Below, piece after piece: positions 1,558-31,632 of a stretch of DNA of 64,000 bases (the first letter of the stretch is position 1; every line of letters begins with the position of its first letter). The stretch comes from Phytophthora colocasiae (lineage: Eukaryota > Oomycota > Peronosporomycetes > Peronosporales > Peronosporaceae), in assembly GCA_018806915.1 (NCBI GenBank), contig JAGKQI010000090.1, positions 2,294,001 to 2,358,000 of the forward strand, given 5' to 3'. The notes under the pieces were generated by a model. The model saw only the letters and a list, made by a program, of their open reading frames with translations, made no database searches and was not told where the DNA came from. Made by a program: the position numbers and the translations under genes.

Positions 1558-4464
1558 TTATTCTGCAGTGTCCTCTGTTGCACACACGACTTTGGCATTC
1601 GTTTTTGCTCTCGGAGCGACACTCATGACTCCTCCCGTTCCGTTCGCTTCGTAGTACCATTTAACTGTTTTCAAGTGTGCATGAGACCCAGCAGCACAAT
1701 GCACAGCGACGAACTGGTGCATTTTGACCCCCGTGGGTTGGTCCACGACGAATTTCTTGAGTTTCCTGGCCAGTCTCGACTCTCCTTGCTGTCTCGTGCC
1801 GAACAGTTCGAGCTGTCGAGCGATTTGCGGTGTTGCACAGTGGTGAAGCACCGAATCCAGACCTCGAGTGCTCCATTTAGCCACGAAAGCACGATCATCC
1901 GACTCCCGAGTGGAAGCCTCGTGCCACGCAGCCATGGACGAGCGTCGACGGACCAAGTTTCTCAGTTTTTTCGTGTCAGTCGAAGCTAAATGCACAAAGA
2001 TGAAGCCAGAAGAAATGAGCAACGCCACTGCCAATCCACCGAAAATGGCGTACAGGTGTGGGTCGGAATGGAGCTCAGCGTTCCGAAGAAGTAGATCAGC
2101 TCCAACCTTACAGCTGAAGTGGATAATTAGCACTGCAATGGCGTTAATTGTCCAAAACCGGACAAAATCGTTCCGAGCAGCATGATCCAGACGCATCGCA
2201 AGTGATCGGGTCTGTAGTGTGACACGAATGACCCAGTAGCTACTGCTTAGAGTGGTGAAGACAAGTGTAAGGCTTCGTACAGGGATAGCAGGAGTACAAT
2301 AGATGACGATACTTCCTTCAGCTGTTGAGAGTTGTGCCGTACACCCAAGAGAGAATATGTTACTAAGAGCTCCAACTGCACCGAGGTAAAGCAACACCAT
2401 CGTTCCTGGATGCTCCAAGGCTCCGTCTGCTGGGTCGCATTGAAGCAATTCAAACAATCCGATGCGTAGTAAAGGAACGACCCCGTTGTTAAATGAATCC
2501 AGTGTTTGAAGACGCGACTGCATCTCTTGAACAGGACGGTAGATACTGTTCCGGATGAAGATCCATACGCTCTTGAGGATGTAAATGTACTCCATTGCGT
2601 AGTATGAGGCGCCAATCAGGTTGAGAATGAGCAGGAATGTACGAATCTGTCGACTGGTATTGTCTTGGATGCGGATACGTCGATTGATTAACGTCGTGTC
2701 GATCATAAACCACTCGATCTGCCGTAGATTCTCCTGGTTTGTGACTAGCGACGCACATGTAGGGAGTTCCATGAGGTCCCCGTCGAGATTTCGGAATAAA
2801 ACTTCATGTGGAGTCATGAATAACCTGCACAAAGTCTGGAGCTCGGTCTCTTGGGAGTCTCTAAACGCACAATTACCAAGTCCGTCCCCCATATAGGCCT
2901 GGTACTTCTGCACATTACGACCACTTTGATGCATAACAGAGTCGACGATCCCTTGACAGTCAGGTGTATACAGATAACCATAGGGGGTTGGTGGTGGTTG
3001 AGATGTCTCGTTGACACGATCTTTAGTCCACGCTGTGCCATCAATTGCCAATAAAGGGGAATCCGCCAACGTCTCCGGTAATACAAGTGCAACATAACCA
3101 GCGGTTGTTTCTCGACGTCGACCTAGAGTGTAAGTCGTTGTGTTATCCAGTTTTGTGTAGTCCCGTTCATCTTTTTGGAACAGAAACATCAAGTTGACTG
3201 CAAAAGTGGGGATGATTTTAGCTAGATCACTTCCACACTGTTTAATTGCACTGGCGTCTACATTTGCAACTGCAAAAGCTTTATCCATCGTCGTGTGTTT
3301 AATCGCACAGTTCCAGAACGGCGCCAAGTGCATTGTCGAGGCCAAATGCATCCCCACGGTGTTAATCAAAAAGTCCGACGTGAAAAACGAAGCTGCTGCG
3401 TGAGTCACTTCAGCCAGAATCGCAGCTTCTCCGTTAACATTAACCCCCATAGTAAGTTGTTGAGTCTCCAGGTAGAATGCGAGTAGTGCACTAACACCCA
3501 AAACGTCAACAAGTGCTACGTGATGTATGTCAAAAGACCCAGGTAACATCGCCACCACTTCCCCCAGTGAAATTCCATTACTGTATCGATCCACGATAGC
3601 GTTTGCCACGGTATTCGTATAGTCCGGGAGACTTAAATCCATATATCCTTCCTGGACGTTTTTCATGATTTTCCGCACGGTCAAAACGTCCGTAAAGTGC
3701 CGTAAGTAAACTTCCGACATGTTCACAACAGCGATAAGACCGAGTGTAACATCTCCGACGTCCGAGAGGTTTTTATCCGTTGGTGCTGTCGTTCCATGGT
3801 TAAAATATCGATCAAGTGGGAATTTATCGTGAAAATCGCGACAGAATTCATGGCGAATTTCAGGGAACCAGTTACCGAACAGAAGTTGCGCCTGTGTCTC
3901 CCACGACTTGATAGAATCCGTTACTGGTCCACACAATGGAGCCAACACATCCACCATGAGATCTACAGGTTGAGCGAGAATTTCTACCGGTAAACCGGCC
4001 AGGAGATCATCTCGACGAATATTCGCACGAACTAAAAAGTCTGTGAGTGAGATACTGGAAGCTGCCGAACGAGAAAGCTCTTTTTTAGTTTCCAAGTCGA
4101 TCAGAGGGAAAAGCGGTCGACTGAACGTGTCGTAGTAGTGTACTCCACTCATAACGATGCCCATTTGATTGAGTTTTCGAGCAGCGATCTCGTCCCTGAC
4201 TTCGTCAAACGGCTCGGTCTTGTAGCTTCCTAGATAATATTCCTTTAGAGGGATCATACTGACGCCCAGAAGAACAACCAGGAAAATCGCAATACAAGTT
4301 CGATACGAGATCTCGTAGTCTTGCAAGTGAAAAGCTGGTTCTTCCGGTTTTTTAGGGTGAGGTTGGATATCTGGAGGGAAGCGAGGGCCATCGTCAACAG
4401 ACAACCGGTTAACAGTGACAGTCTTCCCTTTACTCTCATTGACTTCCTCATCCAGAGCTGCCAT
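1558..4464 (-). CDS. Large multi-pass membrane protein of unrecognised family, intact paralog
   Basis: A 968-residue protein if translation starts at the Met at 4464. An upstream in-frame Met at 4512 exists, but a good oomycete initiator (GCTCATTCTCAACA) sits just before 4464, so the shorter form is preferred. The hydrophilic N-terminus is followed by one membrane segment (CIAIFLVVLLGVSMIPL). Next comes a long, probably extracellular or lumenal region with many Cys, NTTT/NVS-type glycosylation sites and several conserved Trp. Several hydrophobic segments lie in the C-terminal third (FLLILNLIGASYYAMEYIYIL, MVLLYLGAVGALSNIF, LYAIFGGLAVALLISSGFIFVHL), and a cytoplasmic tail ends the protein. It is closely similar along its whole length to the interrupted neighbour at 4602-13015, so the pair is a tandem duplication. 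I do not recognise a named domain and assign no function. Confidence 0.85.
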   Translation of the reverse strand: MAALDEEVNESKGKTVTVNRLSVDDGPRFPPDIQPHPKKPEEPAFHLQDYEISYRTCIAIFLVVLLGVSMIPLKEYYLGSYKTEPFDEVRDEIAARKLNQMGIVMSGVHYYDTFSRPLFPLIDLETKKELSRSAASSISLTDFLVRANIRRDDLLAGLPVEILAQPVDLMVDVLAPLCGPVTDSIKSWETQAQLLFGNWFPEIRHEFCRDFHDKFPLDRYFNHGTTAPTDKNLSDVGDVTLGLIAVVNMSEVYLRHFTDVLTVRKIMKNVQEGYMDLSLPDYTNTVANAIVDRYSNGISLGEVVAMLPGSFDIHHVALVDVLGVSALLAFYLETQQLTMGVNVNGEAAILAEVTHAAASFFTSDFLINTVGMHLASTMHLAPFWNCAIKHTTMDKAFAVANVDASAIKQCGSDLAKIIPTFAVNLMFLFQKDERDYTKLDNTTTYTLGRRRETTAGYVALVLPETLADSPLLAIDGTAWTKDRVNETSQPPPTPYGYLYTPDCQGIVDSVMHQSGRNVQKYQAYMGDGLGNCAFRDSQETELQTLCRLFMTPHEVLFRNLDGDLMELPTCASLVTNQENLRQIEWFMIDTTLINRRIRIQDNTSRQIRTFLLILNLIGASYYAMEYIYILKSVWIFIRNSIYRPVQEMQSRLQTLDSFNNGVVPLLRIGLFELLQCDPADGALEHPGTMVLLYLGAVGALSNIFSLGCTAQLSTAEGSIVIYCTPAIPVRSLTLVFTTLSSSYWVIRVTLQTRSLAMRLDHAARNDFVRFWTINAIAVLIIHFSCKVGADLLLRNAELHSDPHLYAIFGGLAVALLISSGFIFVHLASTDTKKLRNLVRRRSSMAAWHEASTRESDDRAFVAKWSTRGLDSVLHHCATPQIARQLELFGTRQQGESRLARKLKKFVVDQPTGVKMHQFVAVHCAAGSHAHLKTVKWYYEANGTGGVMSVAPRAKTNAKVVCATEDTAE

Positions 4465-4481: not shown

Positions 4482-7356
4482 ATGAAAATAGAGAATGGTC
4501 AAGGCTGATCAAGTTTGAGTGGACTGATCTATCTTCGTGTCTTCAAGCTCAAGGCTATAATAGATTCTCGATATTTACGCAAGAAGAAAGAAATGCCTAA
4601 CCTAATTATTGGAATCTGGAGTTTTGTCAGTCGAATAAACTCGCGGATTTCTTAATGGTGGCTCAATAGTTGCCACCCCGCCACTTCCATCACTTTTAAG
4701 AATCCATTTAACACTCAGCAAGTGTAAATGCGCCCCACCAGCGCAATGAACAGCCACAAAATCGTTGATACGTATAGACGGAATTTGGCCACTGGTCATG
4801 GGTTCGCCTGACCTGCTGCCATTCTTCCAAACCCGAAGCTCGGCTTCCTCTGGCAGACTGGAAATCTGCAATTGCCGTGCGATTTGGGGCGTTGCACAGT
4901 GATAAAGCACCGAATCGAGGTCTTTGGTGCTCCATTTCCCCACAAAAGCACGGTAACTAACAGCTCGAGCCGTTGAATTTTTCCATAATGTCCTCGTCGA
5001 TCTGTTGTTCACTATCGTCTTCAATCGTTCTCTATCGGTTCCAGCCAAATGCACTAGGATAAAACCTGTGGAGATTGCTAATGCCAGACATAATCCACCT
5101 AGAATAGCGTAAATATGGGGATCCGAACTCAATTCCACGCGTTTAAACACCACGTCGGCCAGTCCTTTGCATGTAAAGTGGATAACCAAGACTGCGCATG
5201 CGTTAGTGAACCAAAAGCGGATGAAATTATCTCGAACAACATGATCCAGACGCATAGCTAATGATCGAGACTGCAACGTGACTCGAATGACCCAGTAACT
5301 ACTGCTTAAAGTCGTCAAAAGCAAGTTTAAACTGCTCACAGGAATGGCAGGAAGACAGTGGATAACGATCCCAGCGCCTAACGTCGAAAGTTCAGCTGTA
5401 CAGGCCGGTCGGAAGATATTACTCAAAGACCCGACAGCTCCGAGGTACATTAACACCATAGTAAGGGGATGTTCCAAGGCTCCATCGGCTGGATCACACA
5501 TCAAGAGTTCCAAAATCCCTAATCGCACAAGAGGAGGAGGTTTATAGTGAATATTTTCGGTAGTGGCAATTCGAGATCGCTCTTGAGCTGCAGGTTGGAG
5601 AATACTATTGCTGATGAACGTCCAGATGCTCTTGAGGATGTAAATGTACTGAAGAGCGTAGTGTGAGGCGCCGATAAAGTTTAGCATCAGCAGAAATGTC
5701 CGGATTTGGCGACTGGTATTATCCGTAATGCGGATTTTCCGAGTCAACATCGTGGTATCGATCATAAACCACTCAATTTGGCGGAACGATTCTTGCTCAA
5801 GCTCTTGGTCTTCTTGACTGGCGGATGAATCGACCAGTGAAGCACAGGATGGGATTTCTATAAGCTTACCATCGAGGTCTTGAAAAAGAACCTCATCAGC
5901 TGTCATAAACAACCGACAAAGCGTCTCTAAATCCGTTTCTTGAGAATCTCGGAGCGCACAATTACCCAGACCATCTCCTAAATACGCCTGGTACTTCTGT
6001 ACATTACGTCCACTTTGAGTTAAAGCTTGAGTCACGAGTCGTTTGCAGTCCGGAGTGTACAAATATCCGTATGGTGTTACTGGAATACTTGAAGTCGTGG
6101 ATTTATTCGATTTCTTCGACCAACTGGACCCGTCAATTGTCAAAAGACTCGAGTCTTCCAGTAGCATAGGAATGTCCAGCGGTATAAAATCGGAATCAGC
6201 TTCTCGTCGACGTCCCAGTGTGTAAATTGTACTATTATCCAGTGTCGAGTAGTCTCGGATTTTAGACTGAGAAAGAAACATGAGATTCACGATAAAAGCC
6301 GGGAGATTATTGCTTAAATCAGCTCCACACTGTCTTAAAACAACAGCATCAACATCACCAACACTCAGATTTTTAGCCATCGACGTGTGGCTGATCGAAC
6401 ATTTCCAATAGAAAGCCAAATGAGTCGTCGAAACGTAGTGCATTCCTGCTGTGGTGGACAGGAAATCGGAGGTGAAGAAATGAGCTGCTGCATGTGTCAC
6501 TTCGGCTGAAATTGCGGCTTCTCCGTTGACATTTTTCCCCATTGTCAGCTCTTGAGGCTCGAGATAATATTCCAACAGAGAGCTAATACCTAGAACGTCA
6601 ACGAGAGCTACGTGATCCTTGTCTATTGATGAAGGGAGCAATTTTACGACATCTGCCAAAGAAATTCCCTTACTGTATCGACTCACAATAGCGTCGTTTG
6701 TGTAACTTGATAAATCCAAATCCATGTATCCTTCTTGTACGTTTTTCATGATTTTTCGAATCACTTTTGCCTCGTTGAATTGGCGCAAGTAGACTTCAGA
6801 CATATTCACAATAGCGATCAATCCTAAGCTTGCATTGCCGACTTGTGCGAGATTTACATCGACAGGAGCGTTGGTCTCGTGGTTAAAAAATCGATCACGT
6901 GGAAATCTATCGTGAAAATCTCGACAGAATTCATGCCGAATAACAGGAAAATAATACCCAAATAGTTGTTGGGCCGGAGTTTCAGTGCTAGTAGCTCCAC
7001 AGAGCGGAGCCAGCCCGTCTACCATGAGATTAACTGGTTGGGATAAAATCTCCGCAGGTAAAGTAGCGAGAAGATCACCTCGTCTAACATTAGCTCGTAC
7101 GATAAAATCTGTCAAGGATAAATTGTCCGCAATCGAATGAGTAATGTCATCTTTTGTGTCAAAATCAACGAGTTTAATCTGTTTCCGCTCGAATGTGTCA
7201 TAGTAGTGTCCCCCACTGATGACAACGCCCAGTTGGTTGAGTCTCCGCGCTACAACTTCATTGCGAATATCGTCGAAAGGGTCGGTCACGTAGTTTCCAA
7301 GATAATATTCTTTAAAAGGGGTGAGGAAGGCGACAGAACCAAGAAAAAGAAAGACA

Positions 7357-7361
7357 ACGAC
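7357..7361. repeat. Target site duplication, left copy (ACGAC)
   Basis: ACGAC immediately precedes the 5' LTR. The same five bases follow the 3' LTR. Confidence 0.95.
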
Positions 7362-7786
7362 TGTTGCGCCCGATCTCCACTGGGGAGACCAGGCGCAGAG
7401 GGGAACCCTCTGTGGAGTCAGCTGTGTCGGTAGGCAACCGACACATCTGATCTCCAGATGGGTTCAGTGGCTACTGAGCCAACAGATTTGTATTTGAGTT
7501 AATTAAGGCTATAGTTTAGCTAAGGTTAATCAAGTGACGATACAGTCTGTGGGCAGTTGACAAGTACGTAGCCAAGCTGTGATTGGCTAGTACCGTCTCT
7601 CTGGAGAGAGGCACCATTTGTGCGATGAGGAACCGGAGGCAAGAGGGAGAGGATTCATTCCTCTCACAACCGCTTTTGCTTCGGACTGAGCACGTTCGTA
7701 AGGATAGCATAAGTTAGCGGTAGAGAGATAAAATCAATAAAGACAGTTGATTAAAGACATTCTCTAAGCGTTTATTCACTTTAACA
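7362..7786 (+). repeat. 5' LTR of the copia element
   Basis: 425 bp, starting TG and ending CA. It appears identical to the LTR at 12463-12887. It contains internal short inverted repeats such as CTCTCTGGAGAG near 7597-7608. Confidence 0.97.
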
Positions 7787-7808
7787 TTTCAAGTAAGAGT
7801 GCCAAGTG

Positions 7809-9352
7809 ATGACCAGCAACGCAGCCAGCAACGCCTTCGACAGGCTCGTCTTTCCGAGCGACCCGAAGCAATTCGGTGTCTGGAAGGATTTGATCATCGG
7901 TCATCTGCGCCAGAAAAGTGCTGCGCAACGACGTGACGCAGTGGTCAAGGGGCAAGATGAGCCAGCTTTCGCGTACGAGACGCTACTGCAGAGGCAGTGC
8001 ATTGTGCCACCCCTCCGAGACGGGTGCGACGACTCGTCGCCGACGAGGCAACGATTCGGGCCAACAAGTGGCAGCAAGTTGTGCTGACCGACCAGGATGC
8101 CTACATCCGGTCGATGTTAAGTCAGACGCTACCAAGGTCGTACCTTGAGGCGCTGCGCGTCTCTTTCAACGAAGAGAGTCTGCCAACCGCGTGGGCTCGA
8201 CTGGAGACAACGTTCGGCAAATCCAACGCGCAAGGAATGGCCACTCTGATTACAGAGTTCGACAAAGCTTTGTCGATGGATTTCAGCTCCGTGGGTGAGC
8301 TGATCCAGCGCTTCAAGGAGGCGCGTAATCGGGTCAATCGCCAGTCGCGTGAAACCCTGGGCAATCTGACGATGATCCCCAACCAGTATGCGGCCATGAA
8401 GGTCCTGGCTCTGTTTCCAAGCCAGTATTGGGGTAATCAAGTCGACTATAGCGCTCAAGGCTTCTGCCTTGACAAAGTCGAGGCCATGCTACGCAACGTG
8501 TTCATGAACAAGAGCAGTAGCGAGAATCAAGCGATGACTTCAATGTCGGCAGTACCGGTTCATCACGTGAAAAACCGGGCCAGCTTGGGCAAGCGCAAGA
8601 TTCCGAAGAGCGATGAGTGCTTCTACTGCGATGGAAGATACAATCGCAACGACAGGCCACACAGGAGGGTGGACTGTCCTGCGAAGCAACGTGACGAAGC
8701 CAGGGGCTGTCACCGATCCAACATCTTCCAGAAGGCCAAGGAAATCGGTGTTGCTCATGCGAAGAGCAAAAAGGGCGGATCGAAAAAGAAAGTCCGAGTG
8801 GAGATTCCGGTGGACGCGGCTTTCGTCAAGCCGTCCAGCAAGCCAACGCCTGTTGCTGCGGCACGTGCAGAAGATCCACTGTGGAACATGCTGACACCGG
8901 AACAAGCCAAGGCCGACATTGATGCGCTGATGGCATCTCCACCCCCAACCCCAGGATCGCCTGTGGTATCGGATACGCCGATGAGTGACGACGATGACGT
9001 CGATGACTTCGAACCGAAGAAGGTACCGGTGCTTACCGGAAAAGTCTCGGAAGCTTCCAGCAGCATCCAGAAGGCGTCTACCGACATCGAGAAGACGGTA
9101 AGAGCTTTGTACCCACAACTGATTGAACGAACAGTTACTGACGTGTCGTGTTGTGATTGGGTGTTAGACTCCGGCTGCGGCTACGGATTAACGGCCGACG
9201 AGTCGCTGTTTGTGCGCAAACAGCCAAGCCAAACGTTTAGTTTTACGTTCGGAGAAGGGAGTAAACTTAACAATACACACGTTGGCTCTGTTAAACTCTA
9301 TTTTTGGGTCCAGACGGTATTAAACCGTTTCAATTTGATAATATGGCATTAG
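7809..9352 (+). pseudogene. copia gag and protease region, frame interrupted
   Basis: Translation can begin at the ATG at 7809 (MTSNAASNAFDRLVFPSD), but that frame ends at 8087. The long gag frame continues one register over (about 7970-9352). It shows the copia gag body (WARLETTFGKSNAQGMATL, LIQRFKEARNRVNRQ) and a modified zinc knuckle (CFYCDGRYNRNDRPHRRVDC). An acidic linker and the aspartic protease motif WVLDSGCGYGLTAD follow. An indel somewhere in about 7900-8040 therefore separates the N-terminus from the gag body. The protease end then runs into pol in a different frame near 9295-9310. The element either was inserted already defective, mutated afterwards, or carries sequencing errors. 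Confidence 0.8.
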
Positions 9353-12300
9353 TTCCAAAGGCAAAAGCCAACATACTAAGTGAGTACTGGCTAAAAAGGA
9401 AAGGTTATCAAATTGTTGAGAGTGCAAATGGACAGTACAAGTTTGTACTGTGGAAGCGTAAGCTAGCATTTGTGGCTATTGCTGTGAATGGAGCTTACTA
9501 TGTACAAGGTCGTACACTTAGAGACAGACAGATATACTGTGCAGCAGTAAAGACAAGACCTGTGCAGCCGCTAAGAATGGCAGGTTGTACACAGGTCAAG
9601 ACTGCTTTGACTGAGTGGCATGTCAGACTGGGACATCTAAACAGAGACAAGTTGATCGATGTGATGAGTAGCAACCTGATACCAGGGCTCCCTAGTTACA
9701 GCAGGACTGCACTCACAAAAGTTCCATTCTTCTGTCACACATGCACAGAGATGAAGATGCGGAGGATGAGCTACAGGAACATGGTGGGCACGAGAGACAA
9801 TCGTCCCATAAGTACTATCCACATGGACACGAACGGTCCTATCAAAAAGCTCGGAGTATACGGGGCAGTTGGCTCTATCCGATACTTCCTCAGTATCATT
9901 GACGATCATACATCGTGGCGATGGACATTTGTCCTTCGCAAGAAAACGGAGGTGCAGGTCAAAGTAAAAGAACTGTTGACACGTTTAGAACGAGATGGAA
10001 AGTTCACAATAACACGCATCAGATCCGATGGCGGGACGGAGTTTGTGAACGAAGCACTTAAAACGTATTGCACAAGCAAAGGAATCAGCTTTCAAACATC
10101 AAATCCATACAGTCCAGAGGAAAATGGAGCAGCTGAGAGAGACCACCAAACCAAGATGGGAAAGGTACGGTGCGCTCTAAAAGATGCAGACATGCCGGCT
10201 AAGTGGTGGCCAGAAGCACTCAAATACATGACGTATGTGCAGAATTGCACGCCGATGAGTCGCCTAAAGAACCGAACACCATATGAATTAGTGAAAGGAA
10301 CACACCCGGATGCAAGAACGCTCCAAGTATGGGGATGTGTCTGCTTTGCATACGTGCCAGAAGCAATCCGAAAAGACAAGAAGTTGTCGGCACGAGCCAT
10401 AAAGTGCAGATTCTTGGGAATAGCCGAAGACACAAAAGGGTTTCGACTTCTGGATGTGCACAACAACAAGTTTATGGTCGCTAGATCAGTGACATTTGAC
10501 ACAGAAAATGCATCAGGAATCATCCAAAGATCCTTAGGAAAGGATCCAGATAAGTTGACGGATACTGAGTTGGAAGAGATCGACTCTCTTGACCAAATGT
10601 CAACGACGGAGGAAGTCACTTCCAAAGTTCCTGTCGCCGAGCAAGGCACGGAAAAGTTGTCCAAAGCAGTGGGAGTCAAGCGCAAATCAGCGACAACTAC
10701 TGAAGCAGTGGGAGTTCCTCGCAAATCACAGAGAGCAAAGAGAGCTCCTGTGGAGGTATCAACGAAGCCACAAAGGACAAGGAAACGTCCAGAACGATAC
10801 GAAGACTATAAGTGTTTTCAAACCCACATTGATAAGGAAATTGCTGTGGACCAGCTAAGCAATCATATAGCAGTACCTAGAAGTCTAAAGGAAGCTCTGA
10901 CTGGCGCACAAAGAAAACAGTGGCGCCAAGCACTAAACTTAGAGTACGAATCGCTGCTAGAAAATGACACGTGGAAACTGATACGGTTACCACCAGGCCA
11001 AAAAGCGCTGCCATGCCATTGGGTCCTCGCAGTAAAGTACAATGCGGATGGAACAATTGAGCCCTTTAATGCACGACTTGTAGCACAAGGGAATCACCAA
11101 GAATACGGTGTGGACTGCGATGATGTATACGCACCTGTGGCGCGGTTTGAATCACTCCGGCTAGTTCTGGCTATTGGGACGATCTTGGATTGTCACATTC
11201 ATCAAATGGATGTTAGCACTGCATTCCTCAATGGATCGATGGAAGGCGAACAGCGGGTGCTCATGCATCAACCTCCGGGCTACAGACAGGCTAGACATGA
11301 AGGACTAGTGTGTGAGCTAAGAAAGAGCATTTATGGGCTGAAGCAAGCGCCAAAGATATGGTACAGAGTCTTGCACAAGTTTTTCATGAGCTTAGGTTTT
11401 GTCCGATGCAACAAGGAGTATTGCATCTATGTCCAAAAAGTGGGAGAGCATTGGATAATTGTGGTGGTCTATGTTGATGACCTTACCATCATGTCTCGTG
11501 ACATGAGTTTAATCTACCAGTTAAAGAAAGATCTATCTTCGAGATTTAAGATGAAAGATCTCGGAGACATACACTACATCCTGAAGATGGAGGTCCGTAG
11601 AAATCGTGCACAGCGAAAAATGACAATTTCACAGCACAAGTATGTAACTGAACTCTTGAAGAAGTTCAATATGGAGAACTGTACTCCAGTATCTACTCCA
11701 CAACTCAGAGGAGTTGAACTAGTAGCAGAGACAGAAATGACAGCTAAAGAAATAGCTGATCAGAAATTTGATTTCCGAGGACTTGTCGGGTCTCTGCAGT
11801 ATCTAGTGAGAGGAACTAGACCAGACATTGCCAACGCAGTGAGAGAACTAAGTAAGTTTCTATCGTGTTACAACCACACACACTGGGAGGCAGCACGGAG
11901 AGTGCTCAAATACTTGAAAGGGACGTCAACGTACGGTCTCCTTCTTGATGGGAATTCGAGAACGGTGACGTATGAAGTGTACACAGACGCAAGCTTCGCG
12001 TGTCAACCCAAAGAACGTAAGTCGATTACTGGGTATGTGATCACTATGGCTGGAACCAGTATTTCATGGTGTAGCAGTAAGCAGGCATCAGTTTCTCTTT
12101 CGACAGCTGAGGCTGAACTAATTGCCCTAAGTGAAGGAGCAAAGGAGAGCGAGTGGTTATGGTATCTGCTGAGAGAAATGGGATTTCCTCAAAAGCAACC
12201 AGTGCAAGTATGGTGCGATAGCAAGTCGGCCATAAGCACAGTAAAGAATGCAGGAAATCACAAAGCAACAAAGCACATACAAATACGATATTTGTTTATA

Positions 12301-12456
12301 AGAGATTTAGTAGAGGAAGGAAGGTTAGATGTACATTACTGTCGGACCGATGACATGGCTGCAGACATCTTAACCAAAGCTCTACCAACAGGGCAGTTTG
12401 CAAAGCTTCGCGAACTCATTGGAGTCAAAGACCTAAAGACTACCATCGACACTTAG
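9304..12456 (+). CDS. copia pol: integrase, reverse transcriptase, RNase H
   Basis: About 1,050 residues open in one frame. Order of domains: protease remnant and GAG-pre-integrase zinc motif (WHVRLGHLN... CHTC), integrase core with its Asp and Glu residues (HMDTNGP, IIDDHTS, SPEENGAAERDHQ), reverse transcriptase (VSTAFLNG, VVVYVDDLTIM) and RNase H (VYTDASFAC, STAEAELIAL, WCDSKSAI), ending ADILTKALP. All catalytic motifs I can check by eye are present. The frame lacks a natural ATG at its start: the frame opens at a TTG in a T5G3 run. Expression therefore needs a frameshift from the gag-protease frame, or the original frame was broken there. Confidence 0.93.
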   Translation: MGPDGIKPFQFDNMALVPKAKANILSEYWLKRKGYQIVESANGQYKFVLWKRKLAFVAIAVNGAYYVQGRTLRDRQIYCAAVKTRPVQPLRMAGCTQVKTALTEWHVRLGHLNRDKLIDVMSSNLIPGLPSYSRTALTKVPFFCHTCTEMKMRRMSYRNMVGTRDNRPISTIHMDTNGPIKKLGVYGAVGSIRYFLSIIDDHTSWRWTFVLRKKTEVQVKVKELLTRLERDGKFTITRIRSDGGTEFVNEALKTYCTSKGISFQTSNPYSPEENGAAERDHQTKMGKVRCALKDADMPAKWWPEALKYMTYVQNCTPMSRLKNRTPYELVKGTHPDARTLQVWGCVCFAYVPEAIRKDKKLSARAIKCRFLGIAEDTKGFRLLDVHNNKFMVARSVTFDTENASGIIQRSLGKDPDKLTDTELEEIDSLDQMSTTEEVTSKVPVAEQGTEKLSKAVGVKRKSATTTEAVGVPRKSQRAKRAPVEVSTKPQRTRKRPERYEDYKCFQTHIDKEIAVDQLSNHIAVPRSLKEALTGAQRKQWRQALNLEYESLLENDTWKLIRLPPGQKALPCHWVLAVKYNADGTIEPFNARLVAQGNHQEYGVDCDDVYAPVARFESLRLVLAIGTILDCHIHQMDVSTAFLNGSMEGEQRVLMHQPPGYRQARHEGLVCELRKSIYGLKQAPKIWYRVLHKFFMSLGFVRCNKEYCIYVQKVGEHWIIVVVYVDDLTIMSRDMSLIYQLKKDLSSRFKMKDLGDIHYILKMEVRRNRAQRKMTISQHKYVTELLKKFNMENCTPVSTPQLRGVELVAETEMTAKEIADQKFDFRGLVGSLQYLVRGTRPDIANAVRELSKFLSCYNHTHWEAARRVLKYLKGTSTYGLLLDGNSRTVTYEVYTDASFACQPKERKSITGYVITMAGTSISWCSSKQASVSLSTAEAELIALSEGAKESEWLWYLLREMGFPQKQPVQVWCDSKSAISTVKNAGNHKATKHIQIRYLFIRDLVEEGRLDVHYCRTDDMAADILTKALPTGQFAKLRELIGVKDLKTTIDT

Positions 12457-12462
12457 TGGGAG

Positions 12463-12887
12463 TGTTGCGCCCGATCTCCACTGGGGAGACCAGGCGCAGA
12501 GGGGAACCCTCTGTGGAGTCAGCTGTGTCGGTAGGCAACCGACACATCTGATCTCCAGATGGGTTCAGTGGCTACTGAGCCAACAGATTTGTATTTGAGT
12601 TAATTAAGGCTATAGTTTAGCTAAGGTTAATCAAGTGACGATACAGTCTGTGGGCAGTTGACAAGTACGTAGCCAAGCTGTGATTGGCTAGTACCGTCTC
12701 TCTGGAGAGAGGCACCATTTGTGCGATGAGGAACCGGAGGCAAGAGGGAGAGGATTCATTCCTCTCACAACCGCTTTTGCTTCGGACTGAGCACGTTCGT
12801 AAGGATAGCATAAGTTAGCGGTAGAGAGATAAAATCAATAAAGACAGTTGATTAAAGACATTCTCTAAGCGTTTATTCACTTTAACA
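12463..12887 (+). repeat. 3' LTR of the copia element
   Basis: 425 bp and apparently identical to the 5' LTR. It starts directly after the purine tract that follows the pol stop codon. Confidence 0.97.
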
Positions 12888-12892
12888 ACGAC
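12888..12892. repeat. Target site duplication, right copy (ACGAC)
   Basis: ACGAC immediately follows the 3' LTR and pairs with 7357-7361. Confidence 0.95.
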
Positions 12893-13015
12893 GCATACTT
12901 TATACGAAACTTGGTGGTTGAGGAATTGCATCAGTTGATCTCGAGAGGCTGGAGGTGCTGCTGGAGTTGGGCTATCGGATTTTCCAGTAGAATTGGGTGC
13001 ATTCTGTAAGCTCAT

Positions 13016-13115
13016 TGCTTTCTGTGACCACGTACACTGTAACAGAGCATGAAAATTTTCATGCTCTGTATCGGTCGACTATTTTGGATGAAGACGTACA
13101 CTGGGAACTATTTTA
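13016..13115. other. Short spacer with a perfect 28-bp palindrome
   Basis: Bases 13042-13069 form a perfect palindrome with arms ACAGAGCATGAAAA and TTTTCATGCTCTGT. It lies between the start codon of the interrupted membrane protein gene and the mariner-like element, outside both. It may be a protein-binding site in the promoter of the interrupted gene. Confidence 0.7.
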
Positions 13116-14498
13116 CTACCTCTGTGCGGAAAATAATGAGCATTTTAAAAAAAAATGCGCAGCGCTCCGCCTCGTTGTTTTGGGGAGTTATTAGATTTGC
13201 AGAGGAGGCTATGCGTTTGTGTTGAACTGCTGACAAAACCAAAAAGAAATTTGTGAGCGTACGTGCTCCGCCACATTAGAAGTACTACTAGTAGTAAAAC
13301 GGATCAAACTCAGACGTCGTTGACGTCTCACGAGCAGTTAATGCGTCTGGAACATCCACAGGAGTTGTCAATACAGAAAAGGAGAGTGCTATAGCCGCCT
13401 GCTGTGCTATGGCAAGCGTTGATCCGTCGCAAGGCAGCGAAATCGGCAACTTATCGGCACGTATCAGCTTTTCCTTGTGCAAATGCCTGAGTCGATAGTT
13501 GTTGCGGCCTTCATTCTTAATCATCCAGCCATCAGAGAATCCTGCGTCGTTAACCAGCATCCGACGCGATATATCGCGTGTCATCGACACAGGACGCGTC
13601 TCCTCAACACCAGCCGGTCGATTGACACTCCGTCGCCGCGTAATGTACGTCTCCACTACCGGCCAAATGCCGACTTTGCCGTCCCAATCACCGCGTGGAC
13701 GCGCGACCGCACAGAGAAACATAACTTTAGTAATGTAACGCTTGCTTTGAACAGCTTGGACCGGAGGCTCTTCGGTAGGGCACCCATCTTTCCCTGTGAG
13801 CACATATACATGCTGCCCAACCTTCTTCACGTAAAACCACTTTTCGTCGATGTGGACCACGTCGTGCATTGCGTCGAACTTGTAGGTTCCATCAAGCTGA
13901 GGGATCACATGATCCATGCAGAACTGGATCCTCTTGAGGCGATGCGAAGCGGCGAGCGGTGGACGAGTTTGCCTTAGCGCACGACGTAGGAAGCCCTCCT
14001 TCACGAGTTGTTGCACGAGATATGAGCTCACGCCAGACCCCTGTTGTATAGCACGCTGGTGCTCACGGTTATTTACTGGCACCTCGGCGAGGCGCTTGCA
14101 CAGCTCCACGCGGTTCTTCTTCTTTCGCCCTCGGGAGTTTTTTCTCGACTTGACTACCGCTGCTACCCGGTCTCCCATTGACCTGATACCCTGTTCCCAA
14201 ATGCGAGAAACAGCGCAGCGGTTTACATTAAAGTAGGCAGCGGTCCGCCCGATATCGCCATGCCTAAGCACCCCTCCGTCGCTGTGAAGGAGCAGCATCT
14301 CCCACACTGCTTGGCGCTCTTCGTCAGATACCTGTGATCTTTCCATTGCCGCTCCGGTTTGAAAGTGATGGGGGGAGGTCCAGCGGGAAGATTGGGCGGG
14401 AAATTCGAAATTCAAAAGTTGATCAGATTTGCAAGGTATAGATTCTGAACAGGATGTAATACAATTGGAAATGCTCATTATTTTCCGCACGGAGGTAG
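13116..14498 (-). mobile_element. Mariner-like (plant MLE/Stowaway-type) DNA transposon, internally deleted
   Basis: Thirty-base terminal inverted repeats lie at 13116-13145 and 14469-14498. They begin CTACCTCYGTGCGG and differ at one base. Each is flanked by TA (13114-13115 and 14499-14500), the mariner target duplication. The ends resemble the CTCCCTCCGT ends of Stowaway and plant mariner elements. The element encodes a shortened transposase on the minus strand. Matching ends suggest it could still be moved if an active transposase were supplied. Confidence 0.92.
13288..14346 (-). pseudogene. Mariner-like transposase with catalytic core deleted
   Basis: An open frame of 352 residues from the Met at 14346. 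The N-terminal helix-turn-helix region, the basic linker (KNSRGRKKK) and the first catalytic Asp (VVHIDEKWFYV) are present. Next come KVMFLCAVARPR and DGKVGIWP, as in plant mariner transposases. After TRDISRRMLVND the sequence jumps to the C-terminal family end (NNYRLRHLHKEKLIRADKLP). The stretch that should hold the second and third catalytic Asp (usually a QQDNA-type motif and the PPNSPDLN region) is missing. The loss is in frame, so the shortened protein could bind the ends but could not catalyse transposition. Confidence 0.85.
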
Positions 14499-15090: not shown

Positions 15091-15615
15091 ATGTCCAAGC
15101 TTTTCCTTCTCCTCGTCCTCTCGGTGTTCGCTCTCGTCAGTTGCGAGGCTCTTTCAGCTCCGGTTGGCAACAAACTCGCTCTGTCCAAGACGGAAGAGCT
15201 CAACACTCAGCCAATTGACGCTAAGCGTATGCTGCGTGCTCAAGAAGAACCGACGAACGCTGCTGATGAAGAACGTGGAATGACGGAACTCGCCAGCAAG
15301 TTCAAGGCTTGGGCTGCTGCTTTTAAGACGTGGGTCACCAACTCCAAGCTGGTACAGTCGATGAACAACAAATTGGCGTCGCTCACTCAGAAGGGCCGTG
15401 TGGGTCAGATCGAGAAGCTGCTCAAGCAGGACAACGTCAACGTCAACGTGCTGTACCAGAACAAGGTCAAGCCCGATGAGCTCTTCTTGGCGTTGAAGCT
15501 CGACCCTAAGCTCAAGATGGTCGCCGATACCCCTTCTGCTTGGGCCAACAACCCCGGTCTGTCCATGTTCTACCAGTACGCGCAGCACTACGCCAAGATG
15601 ACCACAAAGGCGTAA
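15091..15615 (+). CDS. Secreted RXLR-EER effector protein
   Basis: 174 residues. A signal peptide spans residues 1-18 (hydrophobic core LFLLLVLSVFALVS). It is followed by RMLR at 46-49 (R-x-L-R) and DEER at 59-62, which together define the oomycete host-targeting RXLR-dEER module. The C-terminal effector domain is helical with conserved aromatic positions (KAWAAAFKTWV, LSMFYQYAQHYAKM) and may hold a WY-type fold. Such proteins are secreted by haustoria or hyphae and act inside plant cells to suppress or alter defence; the host target cannot be seen here. The gene has no intron and has a good Inr+FPR promoter. I see no close copy in the window. Confidence 0.93.
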   Translation: MSKLFLLLVLSVFALVSCEALSAPVGNKLALSKTEELNTQPIDAKRMLRAQEEPTNAADEERGMTELASKFKAWAAAFKTWVTNSKLVQSMNNKLASLTQKGRVGQIEKLLKQDNVNVNVLYQNKVKPDELFLALKLDPKLKMVADTPSAWANNPGLSMFYQYAQHYAKMTTKA

Positions 15616-15815: not shown

Positions 15816-16678
15816 TTTACCACGGCAGTTCAAACACTGGATATTGTTCGTCAGCGTTGAAGAACTTTCCCGTGTCTTCCAGCTTCAAATTGACCATGGC
15901 TTCGGCTGAGGTGGAAGGTTTCATGTAGCCTTGGTGGTCGTTCATGTCGGTTGCAACGTATCCAGGATGCAACGTCACGAATCCGATGTTGCTTTGGCGT
16001 AGATGGACCGACATGGAGCGAGTGACCATGTTGAGAGCAGCCTTCGATGCGGCGTAACCGTACCCTTGACTGAAGAAATCCTCGAATTCGGGCGTGTTGG
16101 AGCCGATGCTGCCCAAAAGTGACGTCACCTGTGCGACGTAGGCAGATCCGTTCTTTTTGACTGCAAGTTCGAGGTTGGGTAGAAGCGCTCGGGTCACGAG
16201 GAAGGGGCCAACAGAATTCACTTCAAATTGGCGCATGAACGAGTCCTTGGTGGCCGATTTGAAGCTATCAGGTACCCAAATTCCAGCATTGTTGATGAGT
16301 AGATCGATGGGAATCCCTTCAAGTTGCCGAGCTGCGTCCAGCACAGATTCTTCGTTGCTTGTATCAAGTGTCACAATCTTGAGAGGTGAGAGGGTCTTGA
16401 GCTATAATGAAAAAGACAGAGTGTGTTGATAAGGGATTTTCGAAAATATAACATTCGTACGGAGGTAGTGGTGCTGTTAGCTCGAGCTGTGCCGATGACA
16501 TTCCAGCCTTCTTTGGTGTAATATTCGGCCAATGCGAGTCCAATGCTGCGTGTGCTTCCCGTGATGAGAACCGTTTTCTTGGTTTCGGCCATGGTGACAG
16601 AACTGGAAGTTGGTGGATGCTTACGCCGAGGTTTGTTTGGAAATGACTAACCGCGATGCAGAAGCTCCTATTGACTAC
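15816..16678 (-). repeat. Left arm of a large inverted duplication (SDR gene plus promoter)
   Basis: About 863 bp, near-identical in reverse complement to 17029-17903. The arms run from the stop codon of each gene, through the gene, to about 86 bp upstream of its ATG. At the outer ends similarity stops directly after the stop codon. Weaker inverted similarity continues inside the spacer (GACGTCATTAYTTGATC at about 16699 and its inverse near 16960). Confidence 0.9.
15817..16592 (-). CDS. Short-chain dehydrogenase/reductase, copy 1
   Basis: 238 residues in two exons (16461-16592 and 15817-16401) with a 59-bp GT-AG intron. It has the classical SDR layout: the Rossmann cofactor motif TGSTRSIG near the start, NNAG at the middle strand, and the catalytic pair in YAASK. 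It is an NAD(P)-dependent oxidoreductase, probably cytosolic; the substrate is unknown. It is the mirror image of the gene at 17115. Copy 1 lacks four residues near the C-terminus (SAEAMVNLK against SAEAMANIVANLK) because of a 12-bp deletion, and has F for L at EQYPVFELPW. Otherwise the two proteins are nearly identical. Confidence 0.92.
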
Positions 16679-17028
16679 CCAGGTACTGACGCTCGAGGAC
16701 GTCATTACTTGATCCACTTCGAACGAATGTTTGTGGCGAGTGTTTAGCCAACAATTATTTACAGTTAGAGACAACCCAAGCACAAGAAAATCGTCCACTT
16801 TGAGTTCATTTCAGGCAAAAAAAGTTAGAAGTGCCGTGAGAATCGGAGTAAGATCCCCGACAAGAAACCGGATCCAGATCCAGTATTAGTTATGAATTTC
16901 GTTGGGAGGTTCTCAGGTAGTGAAAATCGTAATGAGATGCTACAAGACAAGCGATCAAATAATGACGTCACCTAGCCAACACTCTTCACACATCATCAAT
17001 TACTATACAGTACTTTCGAAGTGAACAT
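16679..17028. other. Spacer of the inverted duplication, divergent promoter region
   Basis: 350 bp between the head-to-head SDR genes. No gene is seen. Both genes must be driven from this spacer and the duplicated 86 bp beside each ATG. Patchy inverted similarity suggests the duplication once extended further and was eroded by deletions. Confidence 0.7.
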
Positions 17029-17903
17029 GTAGTCAATAGGAGCTTCTGCATCGCGGTTAGTCATTTCCAAACAAACCTCGGCGTAAGCATCCACCAACTT
17101 CCAGTTCTGTCACCATGGCCGAAACCAAGAAAACGGTTCTCATTACGGGAAGCACACGCAGCATTGGACTCGCATTGGCCGAATATTACACCAAAGAAGG
17201 CTGGAATGTCATCGGCACAGCTCGAGCTAACAGCACCACTACCTCCGTACGAATGTTATATTTTCGAAAATCCCTTATCAACACACTCTGTCGTTTTCAT
17301 TATAGCTCAAGACCCTCTCACCTCTCAAGATTGTGACACTTGATACAAGCAACGAAGAATCTGTGCTGGACGCAGCTCGGCAACTTGAAGGGATTCCCAT
17401 CGATCTACTCATCAACAATGCTGGAATTTGGGTACCTGATAGCTTCAAATCGGCCACCAAGGACTCGTTCATGCGCCAATTTGAAGTGAATTCTGTTGGC
17501 CCCTTCCTCGTGACCCGAGCGCTTCTACCCAACCTCGAACTTGCAGTCAAAAAGAACGGATCTGCCTACGTCGCACAGGTGACGTCACTTTTGGGCAGCA
17601 TCGGCTCCAACACGCCCGAGTTCGAGGATTTCTTCAGTCAGGGGTACGGTTACGCCGCATCCAAGGCTGCTCTCAACATGGTCACTCGCTCCATGTCGGT
17701 CCATCTACGCCAAAGCAACATCGGATTCGTGACGTTGCATCCTGGATACGTTGCAACCGACATGAACGACCACCAAGGCTACGTGAAACCTTCCATCTCA
17801 GCCGAAGCCATGGCCAACATCGTGGCCAATTTGAAGCTGGAAGACACGGGCAAGTTCTTCAACGCTGACGAACAATATCCAGTGCTTGAACTGCCGTGGT
17901 AAT
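17029..17903 (+). repeat. Right arm of the inverted duplication
   Basis: Near-identical reverse complement of 15816-16678; it is 12 bp longer at the C-terminal coding difference. See the left arm for boundaries. Confidence 0.9.
17115..17902 (+). CDS. Short-chain dehydrogenase/reductase, copy 2
   Basis: 242 residues in two exons (17115-17246 and 17306-17902), with a GT-AG intron of 59 bp (17247-17305) at a phase-0 join (NSTTTS then LKTLSPLKIVTLD). It shows TGSTRSIG for cofactor binding, NNAG, and YAASK at the active site. It is an NAD(P)-dependent oxidoreductase of unknown substrate. This copy keeps the four residues lost in copy 1 and is probably nearer to the ancestral form. Divergently arranged with copy 1 across a 522-bp intergenic region. 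Confidence 0.93.
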
Positions 17904-29868: not shown

Positions 29869-31632
29869 TCATGGATTCATCAACTGGTGCACCACTTTGG
29901 CCAGTAGATCGATATTTTCCAGTGTCGAGTTGTTTCCATAGTTGACGATCAACTGCTCCAGCACAGGACCCAGAGCAGCTTCATAGTCGAGGCGAAGAAT
30001 AGATCGTGTAAGGATCGTCGCATCCCTGACTTTCGACTTTGCGGTCGCTTCCAACAGTTCCAGTACATGACGAAAAGGATCAATCCAAAGAAGTTTCCCT
30101 TCACTGACGATCACATTCTGCACGCGAGGATCTCCATGCGGAACCCCTTTGTTGTGGAGCAGCCATAACAGTTCAAAGAGCTGCTGCACCGCCTCGTGTG
30201 TCGTCGGGTGAGGCAATGGAGTTCCGACTGGAGACAGCAACAACGCTCCGCCAAGTCCAGTGTAATTTACGTCATCCGGTCCGTCAACCTCAATGCGAAG
30301 TACCTCTTCCACAGGACGTACGGTCAAGCCTGTATGCTGGCCATACGACAAGACTTCCTCCTCGCCATATAGTCGTGCAGCGTATTCTTCATCACAACTG
30401 ACCTTCAACGCCATAACCTGCTGTCGACTTGGTAGAGTCACCTTGAAAACGTAGCCGAATGCTCCACGACCCAGAAACGCGTCACCTTCCACCACATCAA
30501 CGCTCAAAGAAGAGCAAGCCTTTGCTAAGAATACCGGGCATGGACGCATATTCTTTCTGATGAAGTTCTGAAGAGATTCCTTGGAGCCCTTGCTGACCCA
30601 GGTCGACTTTTCAACTTTGAGGACAACTGAATTGTAGCTCTCGATCAGCCAGAAGGAACAGCGGTCAAAGAGAATGCCGTGGGCCATGTAGGTCAGATTC
30701 TCCAGGTACTGAATCATTTGACCAAATGCTTCGTCCGTTATGGTGAGCTGCCGTTCGAACAAGAAGACGCAGTCGTACAATTCTTCCACTGCTACCCCAA
30801 ATCGAAATTGTTGAACTCCATTGTTTGGCACAGGCTTCGCGCGATACATCCCCGCGTGAGTGGCAAATGCATCCGGTTTGAGGATTGTAGTACTCATGGG
30901 CACAACTTTCTGAGCCAGCCACGGTTCCGCGCTCTTGATGAGAACCATATCACAGCGGGCCAACACGTCGTTGAGGTAAGGAGCAATGAATGCGTCAAAA
31001 TCCGCCTCCTTAGTCATGGCATCCACGTCAGCCTGAACTTCTACCGACCAAAAGGCTTCTCCATTCTCCACTGGGGCAATTTCAAGCATCAGATCGTCCT
31101 TCTCCAGTCTCAGACGTTCTTGAAGTCCAATCCACGCAGTCGTGTAGGATTTTGGAGCTTTGTGTGGCAATTCAGCTGTAGCCCTAGTCTGTTGTTGGTA
31201 ATAGTAGCCGTTGATAGCTCGACGTTGACGCTTGAACGCTTCTCGAATCTCCACGAATGATTCATGATACGTTTGAGGAGTTGACAATTGACGCTCCCGT
31301 GGGACCACCATCAGTACGTGAACCGTCTTGTTCATCGGGCTATTGCTAAACAAGTCGCCAATTCGGTCGGAGGCTTGCATCTCCACGTACGGAGTGACAT
31401 CTCCACTCCTCTGCACTGCCTTCAGAACGGAATTCGAATTCGAATTCAGTTTTAACCACGTATTGCCCCGCTTTGCTAGGTAAAGTTGTAGTCGGTCTGC
31501 CGCGCATGTGATGGAGTGGAGATTCTCCTTCTTGATCGCCTTCTTCAAGTCATTCACCGACAAATTCTCGTTGATATCGACGGAGATCACATCACATGCC
31601 CCACCAATCTTCGCACAAAAGAGCTTGACCAT
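29869..31632 (-). CDS. Crinkler (CRN) effector with kinase-like C-terminus
   Basis: 587 residues. The N-terminus (MVKLFCAKIG... SVDINENLSVNDLKKAIKKEN) is the ubiquitin-like CRN header domain. LQLYLAK at residues 48-54 is the LxLFLAK-type motif and HVLMVVP at 105-111 closes the header region. The C-terminal domain is kinase-like, as in the CRN8/D2 class: glycine loop LGRGAFGYVFKV near residue 387, then MALKV, HGDPRVQNVIV for the catalytic loop near 498, and LLWIDPF in place of DFG. CRN proteins are translocated into plant cells and act mostly in the nucleus. There is no classical signal peptide, as is common in CRNs. Two decayed relatives lie at 46018 and 52240. Confidence 0.92.
   Translation of the reverse strand: MVKLFCAKIGGACDVISVDINENLSVNDLKKAIKKENLHSITCAADRLQLYLAKRGNTWLKLNSNSNSVLKAVQRSGDVTPYVEMQASDRIGDLFSNSPMNKTVHVLMVVPRERQLSTPQTYHESFVEIREAFKRQRRAINGYYYQQQTRATAELPHKAPKSYTTAWIGLQERLRLEKDDLMLEIAPVENGEAFWSVEVQADVDAMTKEADFDAFIAPYLNDVLARCDMVLIKSAEPWLAQKVVPMSTTILKPDAFATHAGMYRAKPVPNNGVQQFRFGVAVEELYDCVFLFERQLTITDEAFGQMIQYLENLTYMAHGILFDRCSFWLIESYNSVVLKVEKSTWVSKGSKESLQNFIRKNMRPCPVFLAKACSSLSVDVVEGDAFLGRGAFGYVFKVTLPSRQQVMALKVSCDEEYAARLYGEEEVLSYGQHTGLTVRPVEEVLRIEVDGPDDVNYTGLGGALLLSPVGTPLPHPTTHEAVQQLFELLWLLHNKGVPHGDPRVQNVIVSEGKLLWIDPFRHVLELLEATAKSKVRDATILTRSILRLDYEAALGPVLEQLIVNYGNNSTLENIDLLAKVVHQLMNP

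What the first reader, a model, noticed from the sequence alone, without database searches (positions are those of the whole stretch)
4602..13015. A recent copia insertion splits a tandem membrane-protein paralog in its first membrane segment
The LTRs look identical, the target duplication ACGAC is perfect, and the host frame is otherwise undamaged. Excision on paper gives an open 960-residue gene colinear with its intact neighbour. The break may therefore be segregating as presence/absence among isolates or between haplotypes.
Basis: seen in the sequence. Interest (0 to 1): 0.75.

Follow-up and report, generated by a model that had tools for sequence, protein, structure and literature searches.

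The report
Recent jumping gene breaks membrane-protein gene
In a Phytophthora genome (a plant-pathogen genus), a copia-type retrotransposon has landed, apparently recently, inside one of two neighbouring sister genes for an uncharacterised membrane protein and cut it in two; this is an ordinary kind of mutation, cleanly documented here.

Summary
A 5,526-bp Ty1/copia element with identical 425-bp LTRs lies between perfect ACGAC duplications and splits a minus-strand gene (13015 to 4602). The two host pieces (41 and 919 residues) abut exactly, in the first hydrophobic segment; 10 of 10 relatives aligned read straight through, the nearest (P. citrophthora) at 96% identity. So the break belongs to this lineage. 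Recency rests on LTR identity (pair divergence under 0.7% at 95%), a young family, and protein change no faster than in the intact P. citrophthora gene (12 v 17 polarised changes, 12 v 12 on the stricter count). The frame is otherwise undamaged, apart from a private 3-residue in-frame loss. New here: this element copy is itself defective in gag, and a Tc1/mariner-type element sits about 100 bp upstream of the gene's start. Segregation is untested: the assembly appears to hold one haplotype, so the missing empty allele says nothing. Ordinary in kind; the effect is unknown because the protein family has no identified fold or function.

The parts
7362..7786 (+). 5' LTR, 425 bp
   Evidence: identical to 3' LTR; TG...CA
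12463..12887 (+). 3' LTR, 425 bp
7357..7361 (.). target site duplication ACGAC, left
   Evidence: exact 5-bp duplications at 12 of 14 sites of this family with both outer flanks in hand
12888..12892 (.). target site duplication ACGAC, right
7797..9349 (+). gag and start of protease, in two frames (7797-8084 and 7961-9349); broken in this copy by a private 14-bp insertion
   Evidence: frames; private insertion; Retrotran_gag_2 and Pol_BBD hits below their cut-offs
9295..12453 (+). rest of pol: GAG-pre-integrase, integrase, SH3-like, copia reverse transcriptase; 1,053 codons open
12893..13015 (-). N-terminal piece of the split host gene, 41 codons
4602..7361 (-). C-terminal piece of the split host gene, 919 codons and stop
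1558..4464 (-). intact tandem paralogue, 968 residues
   Evidence: 95% identical to P. capsici DVH05_002566
13116..14498 (-). Tc1/mariner-type DNA transposon about 100 bp upstream of the split gene's start; 400-codon transposase-like frame 13288-14490
   Evidence: 32-nt inverted arms (TA included) 97% complementary; DUF7769 and a sub-cut-off HTH_Tnp_Tc3_2 hit; its left end recurs at 33 or more other places

Best explanation
A Ty1/copia LTR retrotransposon of a low-copy, recently expanding family integrated into a functioning gene without introns after this lineage split from P. citrophthora. It made a 5-bp staggered cut, in the codons of the first transmembrane segment, in opposite orientation to the gene. 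As the genome stands the gene's start reads 41 own residues plus 25 from the duplicated site and LTR and stops; the remaining 919 codons have no ATG before codon 113, so the membrane anchor is lost and the gene is most likely a null allele (inferred). The family's enzymes probably copied the element (inferred); whether this copy was mobilised in trans or lost its gag frame after landing is open.
For: LTRs identical and duplicated target. Both host pieces match one orthologue with no residue missing or added at the junction; 10 of 10 relatives aligned are continuous there. Window v P. citrophthora: 38 differences in 960 residues; 12 polarise to the window and 17 to P. citrophthora (p = 0.46), 9 not polarised; five of the 17 rest on P. 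capsici alone, and without them the count is 12 v 12; 2 v 3 at columns invariant in the other relatives. Two LTR bases (alignment columns 41 and 192) are shared by both window LTRs and by none of the other 20 LTRs of the close set, as expected for one template. Truncated frame and lack of a start codon.
Against: LTR identity could come from gene conversion or from polishing, though other pairs in the same assembly show 0 to 8 differences. No transcript data. The relative-rate test has little power over a short time. One 3-residue in-frame loss is private to the window.
Confidence: 0.93

Rival explanations
1. Old insertion into an already dead paralogue, made to look young by gene conversion between its LTRs.
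For: LTR identity alone cannot exclude conversion; a second transposon sits upstream of the gene.
Against: No stop or frameshift in 960 codons and no excess of protein changes.
Confidence: 0.04
2. Assembly artefact that places a repeat in an intact gene.
For: 1-2-nt indels in two units of the C48 array that have no private substitutions suggest imperfect sequence in repeats.
Against: A perfect target duplication and LTR bases private to this copy are not expected from a misjoin.
Confidence: 0.02
3. The element is removed from the transcript like an intron, and the gene still works.
For: A copia element within the alpha-SNAP gene of soybean rhg1-a is reported (PMC6712407, title and start of abstract in the listing; that this gene still works is recalled).
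Against: Here the element lies antisense within codons of a gene that shows no intron, and leaves a 5-bp duplication; no RNA data either way.
Confidence: 0.03

Closest known systems
Ty1/copia LTR retrotransposons of Phytophthora (e.g. the derepressed Ty1-copia clusters of P. ramorum, PMC3329494, passages read)
   Same: class of element in the same genus, with groups of closely similar copies
   Different: no sequence comparison with the P. ramorum clusters was made; this family is small (42 LTR match rows, a lower bound)
Phytophthora 'transmembrane protein' family (P. citrophthora P3T76_015207, P. oleae V7S43_009889, P. capsici Phyca11/120700)
   Same: the split gene's C-terminal piece is 96, 89 and 87% identical to these
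   Different: they are uninterrupted at the site
Transposon insertion alleles in coding sequence, in general
   Same: clean disruption with target duplication
   Different: nothing in kind

Membership tests
Ty1/copia LTR retrotransposon | direct LTRs with TG...CA ends | tested here: met
Ty1/copia LTR retrotransposon | integrase before reverse transcriptase; copia-type RT | tested here: met
   rve 187-271, RVT_2 554-801 (E 1.1e-69) in the 1,050-residue frame
Ty1/copia LTR retrotransposon | 5-bp target duplication | tested here: met
   met at the window site. In the family: exact at 12 of 14 sites with both outer flanks in hand; not exact at solo LTR L041 and at the C19 array (4 of 5 bases) (re-lists the 12 that matched). 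Not counted: opposite-facing LTRs L036, and L044-L047, which lack an outer flank or an LTR end
Ty1/copia LTR retrotransposon | intact gag-pol frame (autonomous copy) | tested here: not met
   broken in this copy; 0 of 9 copies examined has one open frame. Bears on autonomy, not on class
Ty1/copia LTR retrotransposon | tRNA primer binding site | not tested
   no tRNA comparison was made
Phytophthora transmembrane-protein family | full-length homology and conserved N-terminal hydrophobic segment | tested here: met
Tc1/mariner DNA transposon (upstream element) | terminal inverted repeats, TA target, DDE transposase | tested here: inconclusive
   repeats and TA met; transposase only a sub-cut-off HTH_Tnp_Tc3_2 hit

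The most novel reading that the evidence does not exclude
The insertion is still segregating: a young, active copia family is producing natural knock-outs, and this one gives a same-species intact/null allele pair of a tandem membrane-protein duplicate whose function is unknown.
Probability: 0.4. Interest if true: 0.4.

Novelty: new member of a known kind. Interest (0 to 1): 0.25.

Why it matters
It places recent copia activity in a Phytophthora lineage after its split from P. citrophthora and offers a likely natural null of a conserved oomycete membrane protein. It changes no general view of transposon biology.

Tried and rejected
Allelic empty site in the own assembly: the C-terminal flank occurs once plus the neighbour paralogue at 67%; the flank on the start side occurs in full once, its other matches being the end of the upstream transposon, apart from a self-match of the palindrome. 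A one-haplotype assembly would explain this: the Rpb1 domain of RNA polymerase sits at 3 loci and a gene elsewhere in the window occurs once plus an 82% partial relative.

Species: not settled. Nearest proteins are P. citrophthora for the broken gene (96%) and P. capsici for the neighbour (95%); hits are cluster representatives, so closer ones may be hidden. P. citrophthora and P. theobromicola assemblies are 45.6-48.5 Mb (PMC10751748, PMC12774592, passages) against 92.5 Mb here, so the window is probably neither (inference).

Age in years: not attempted, as no rate for oomycete LTRs and no DNA of the sister species was at hand. Literature: six searches, rows listed 20 of 222, 12 of 12, 6 of 6, 12 of 40, 12 of 20 and 9 of 9; no title or abstract start among them reports this insertion. 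Only passages of PMC12774592, PMC10751748, PMC3329494 and PMC11139960 were seen.

Full report
What was checked. The LTRs (7362-7786; 12463-12887) agree in 425 of 425 bases, the element is 5,526 bp, and ACGAC flanks it on both sides. Integrase precedes the copia-type reverse transcriptase, so it is Ty1/copia and not gypsy (the order that divides the two is textbook knowledge, not a call).

The host gene. On the minus strand the gene starts at 13015 and ends at 4602. Its first 41 codons lie right of the element and its last 919 left of it. In an alignment with ten Phytophthora relatives the two pieces meet with no residue lost or gained, and all ten relatives are continuous there (I chose the ten from the hits, many of which are partial gene models; P. 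capsici Phyca11/120700 itself lacks the first residues but spans the site). The nearest is P. citrophthora P3T76_015207, 96% identical and 963 residues long. The site lies between residues 41 and 42 of that protein, within its first hydrophobic segment at 36-54. The family has three members in the assembly: the split gene, its intact neighbour, and a third on contig C33, 68% identical to the neighbour. The tandem pair looks old: P. pseudosyringae and P. ramorum have consecutively numbered homologues of both genes (PHYPSEUDO_007877/007878 and PRIC1_012748/012749).

Is it recent? With 0 differences in 425 columns the 95% upper bound on pair divergence is 0.7%. Of the 42 LTR match rows in the assembly (a lower bound) 33 were compared and nine, eight of them fragments, were not. 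Among nine colinear elements or arrays with exact target duplications, LTR substitutions were 0 (window), 1, 1, 1, 0, 2, 8, 1 (outer LTRs of the C48 array) and 4; three of the pairs also differ by one or two indels. Left out of that list: the opposite-facing pair L036 (2) and the C19 array (3 between two of its LTRs). LTRs of different elements are often identical too, so much of the family is young. Independently, the broken gene has not changed faster than the intact P. citrophthora gene: 12 changes polarise to the window and 17 to P. citrophthora (binomial p = 0.46), with nine not polarised; five of the 17 rest on P. capsici alone, and without them it is 12 v 12; 2 and 3 fall at columns invariant in the other relatives. 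The gene was therefore probably under normal constraint for most of the time since that split. Against this, a 3-residue in-frame loss is private to the window, and the test would not notice a short spell without constraint.

State of the element. It is not. Its gag region changes frame, with a 14-bp insertion found in none of nine other copies aligned, and a one-base length difference near the gag/protease junction divides the copies. None of nine copies examined, this one included, has one open gag-pol frame. Some of this may be sequence error: two units of the C48 array carry 0 private substitutions but 9 private indels of 1-2 bases, with the caveat that near-twins lower each other's private substitution count. 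The window copy, with 22 private substitutions and one 14-bp insertion, does not look like that. So either it was copied in trans or it lost gag after landing.

Effect. As it stands, translation from the gene's own start would give 41 own residues and 25 more from the duplicated site and the antisense LTR. The downstream piece is open for 34 codons into the other LTR without an ATG, and its first ATG is at 7025. The likely outcome is a null allele; this is inferred, as no RNA was available.

Second element upstream. A 1.38-kb element with inverted ends and TA flanks occupies 13116-14498, about 100 bp from the start codon. Its left end recurs at 33 or more other places in the assembly. Whether it arrived before or after the copia element, and whether it disturbed the promoter, is unknown.

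Segregation. The claim that the insertion may be polymorphic is plausible for an insertion this young but untested. The assembly appears to be one haplotype, so neither the presence of the filled site nor the absence of an empty one bears on it.

Prior work. Recent Ty1/copia activity in Phytophthora is known: in P. ramorum most over-expressed transposon transcripts of derepressed isolates were Ty1-copia (PMC3329494, passages), and in P. sojae centromeres are rich in copia-like elements, with more recent insertion times on fused than on non-fused chromosomes (PMC11139960, passages). The finding fits that picture.

Verdict. A correct and well-described observation of an ordinary kind of event; interest 0.25.

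Noticed in passing
window 13116-14498: Tc1/mariner-type element about 100 bp upstream of the split gene, transposase-like frame of 400 codons on the minus strand.
   Followed up: partly
window 13042-13069: Perfect 28-bp palindrome 26 bp upstream of the split gene's ATG; the only match in the assembly at up to 2 mismatches.
   Followed up: partly
window 15817-17902: Inverted duplication of a short-chain-dehydrogenase-like gene: arms of 789 nt, 99% complementary, and 80 nt, 96%. The enzyme name is from reading the frame, not from a search.
   Followed up: partly
window 15091-15615: Small secreted-protein-like frame that resembles an RxLR effector by eye (label recalled, no call).
   Followed up: no
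window 29869-31632: Frame with a Crinkler effector N-terminal domain (PF20147, E 1.3e-20).
   Followed up: no
G000:C48:1242770-1258451 (L034, L035): Tandem array of three units of the same copia family sharing four LTRs, with one outer target duplication ATGTC; a similar array with three LTRs on C19.
   Followed up: partly
L036 (G000:C32:259200-269100): Two LTRs of the family face opposite ways, yet their outer flanks share CGGTG when read in element orientation: an element perhaps split by an inversion.
   Followed up: no
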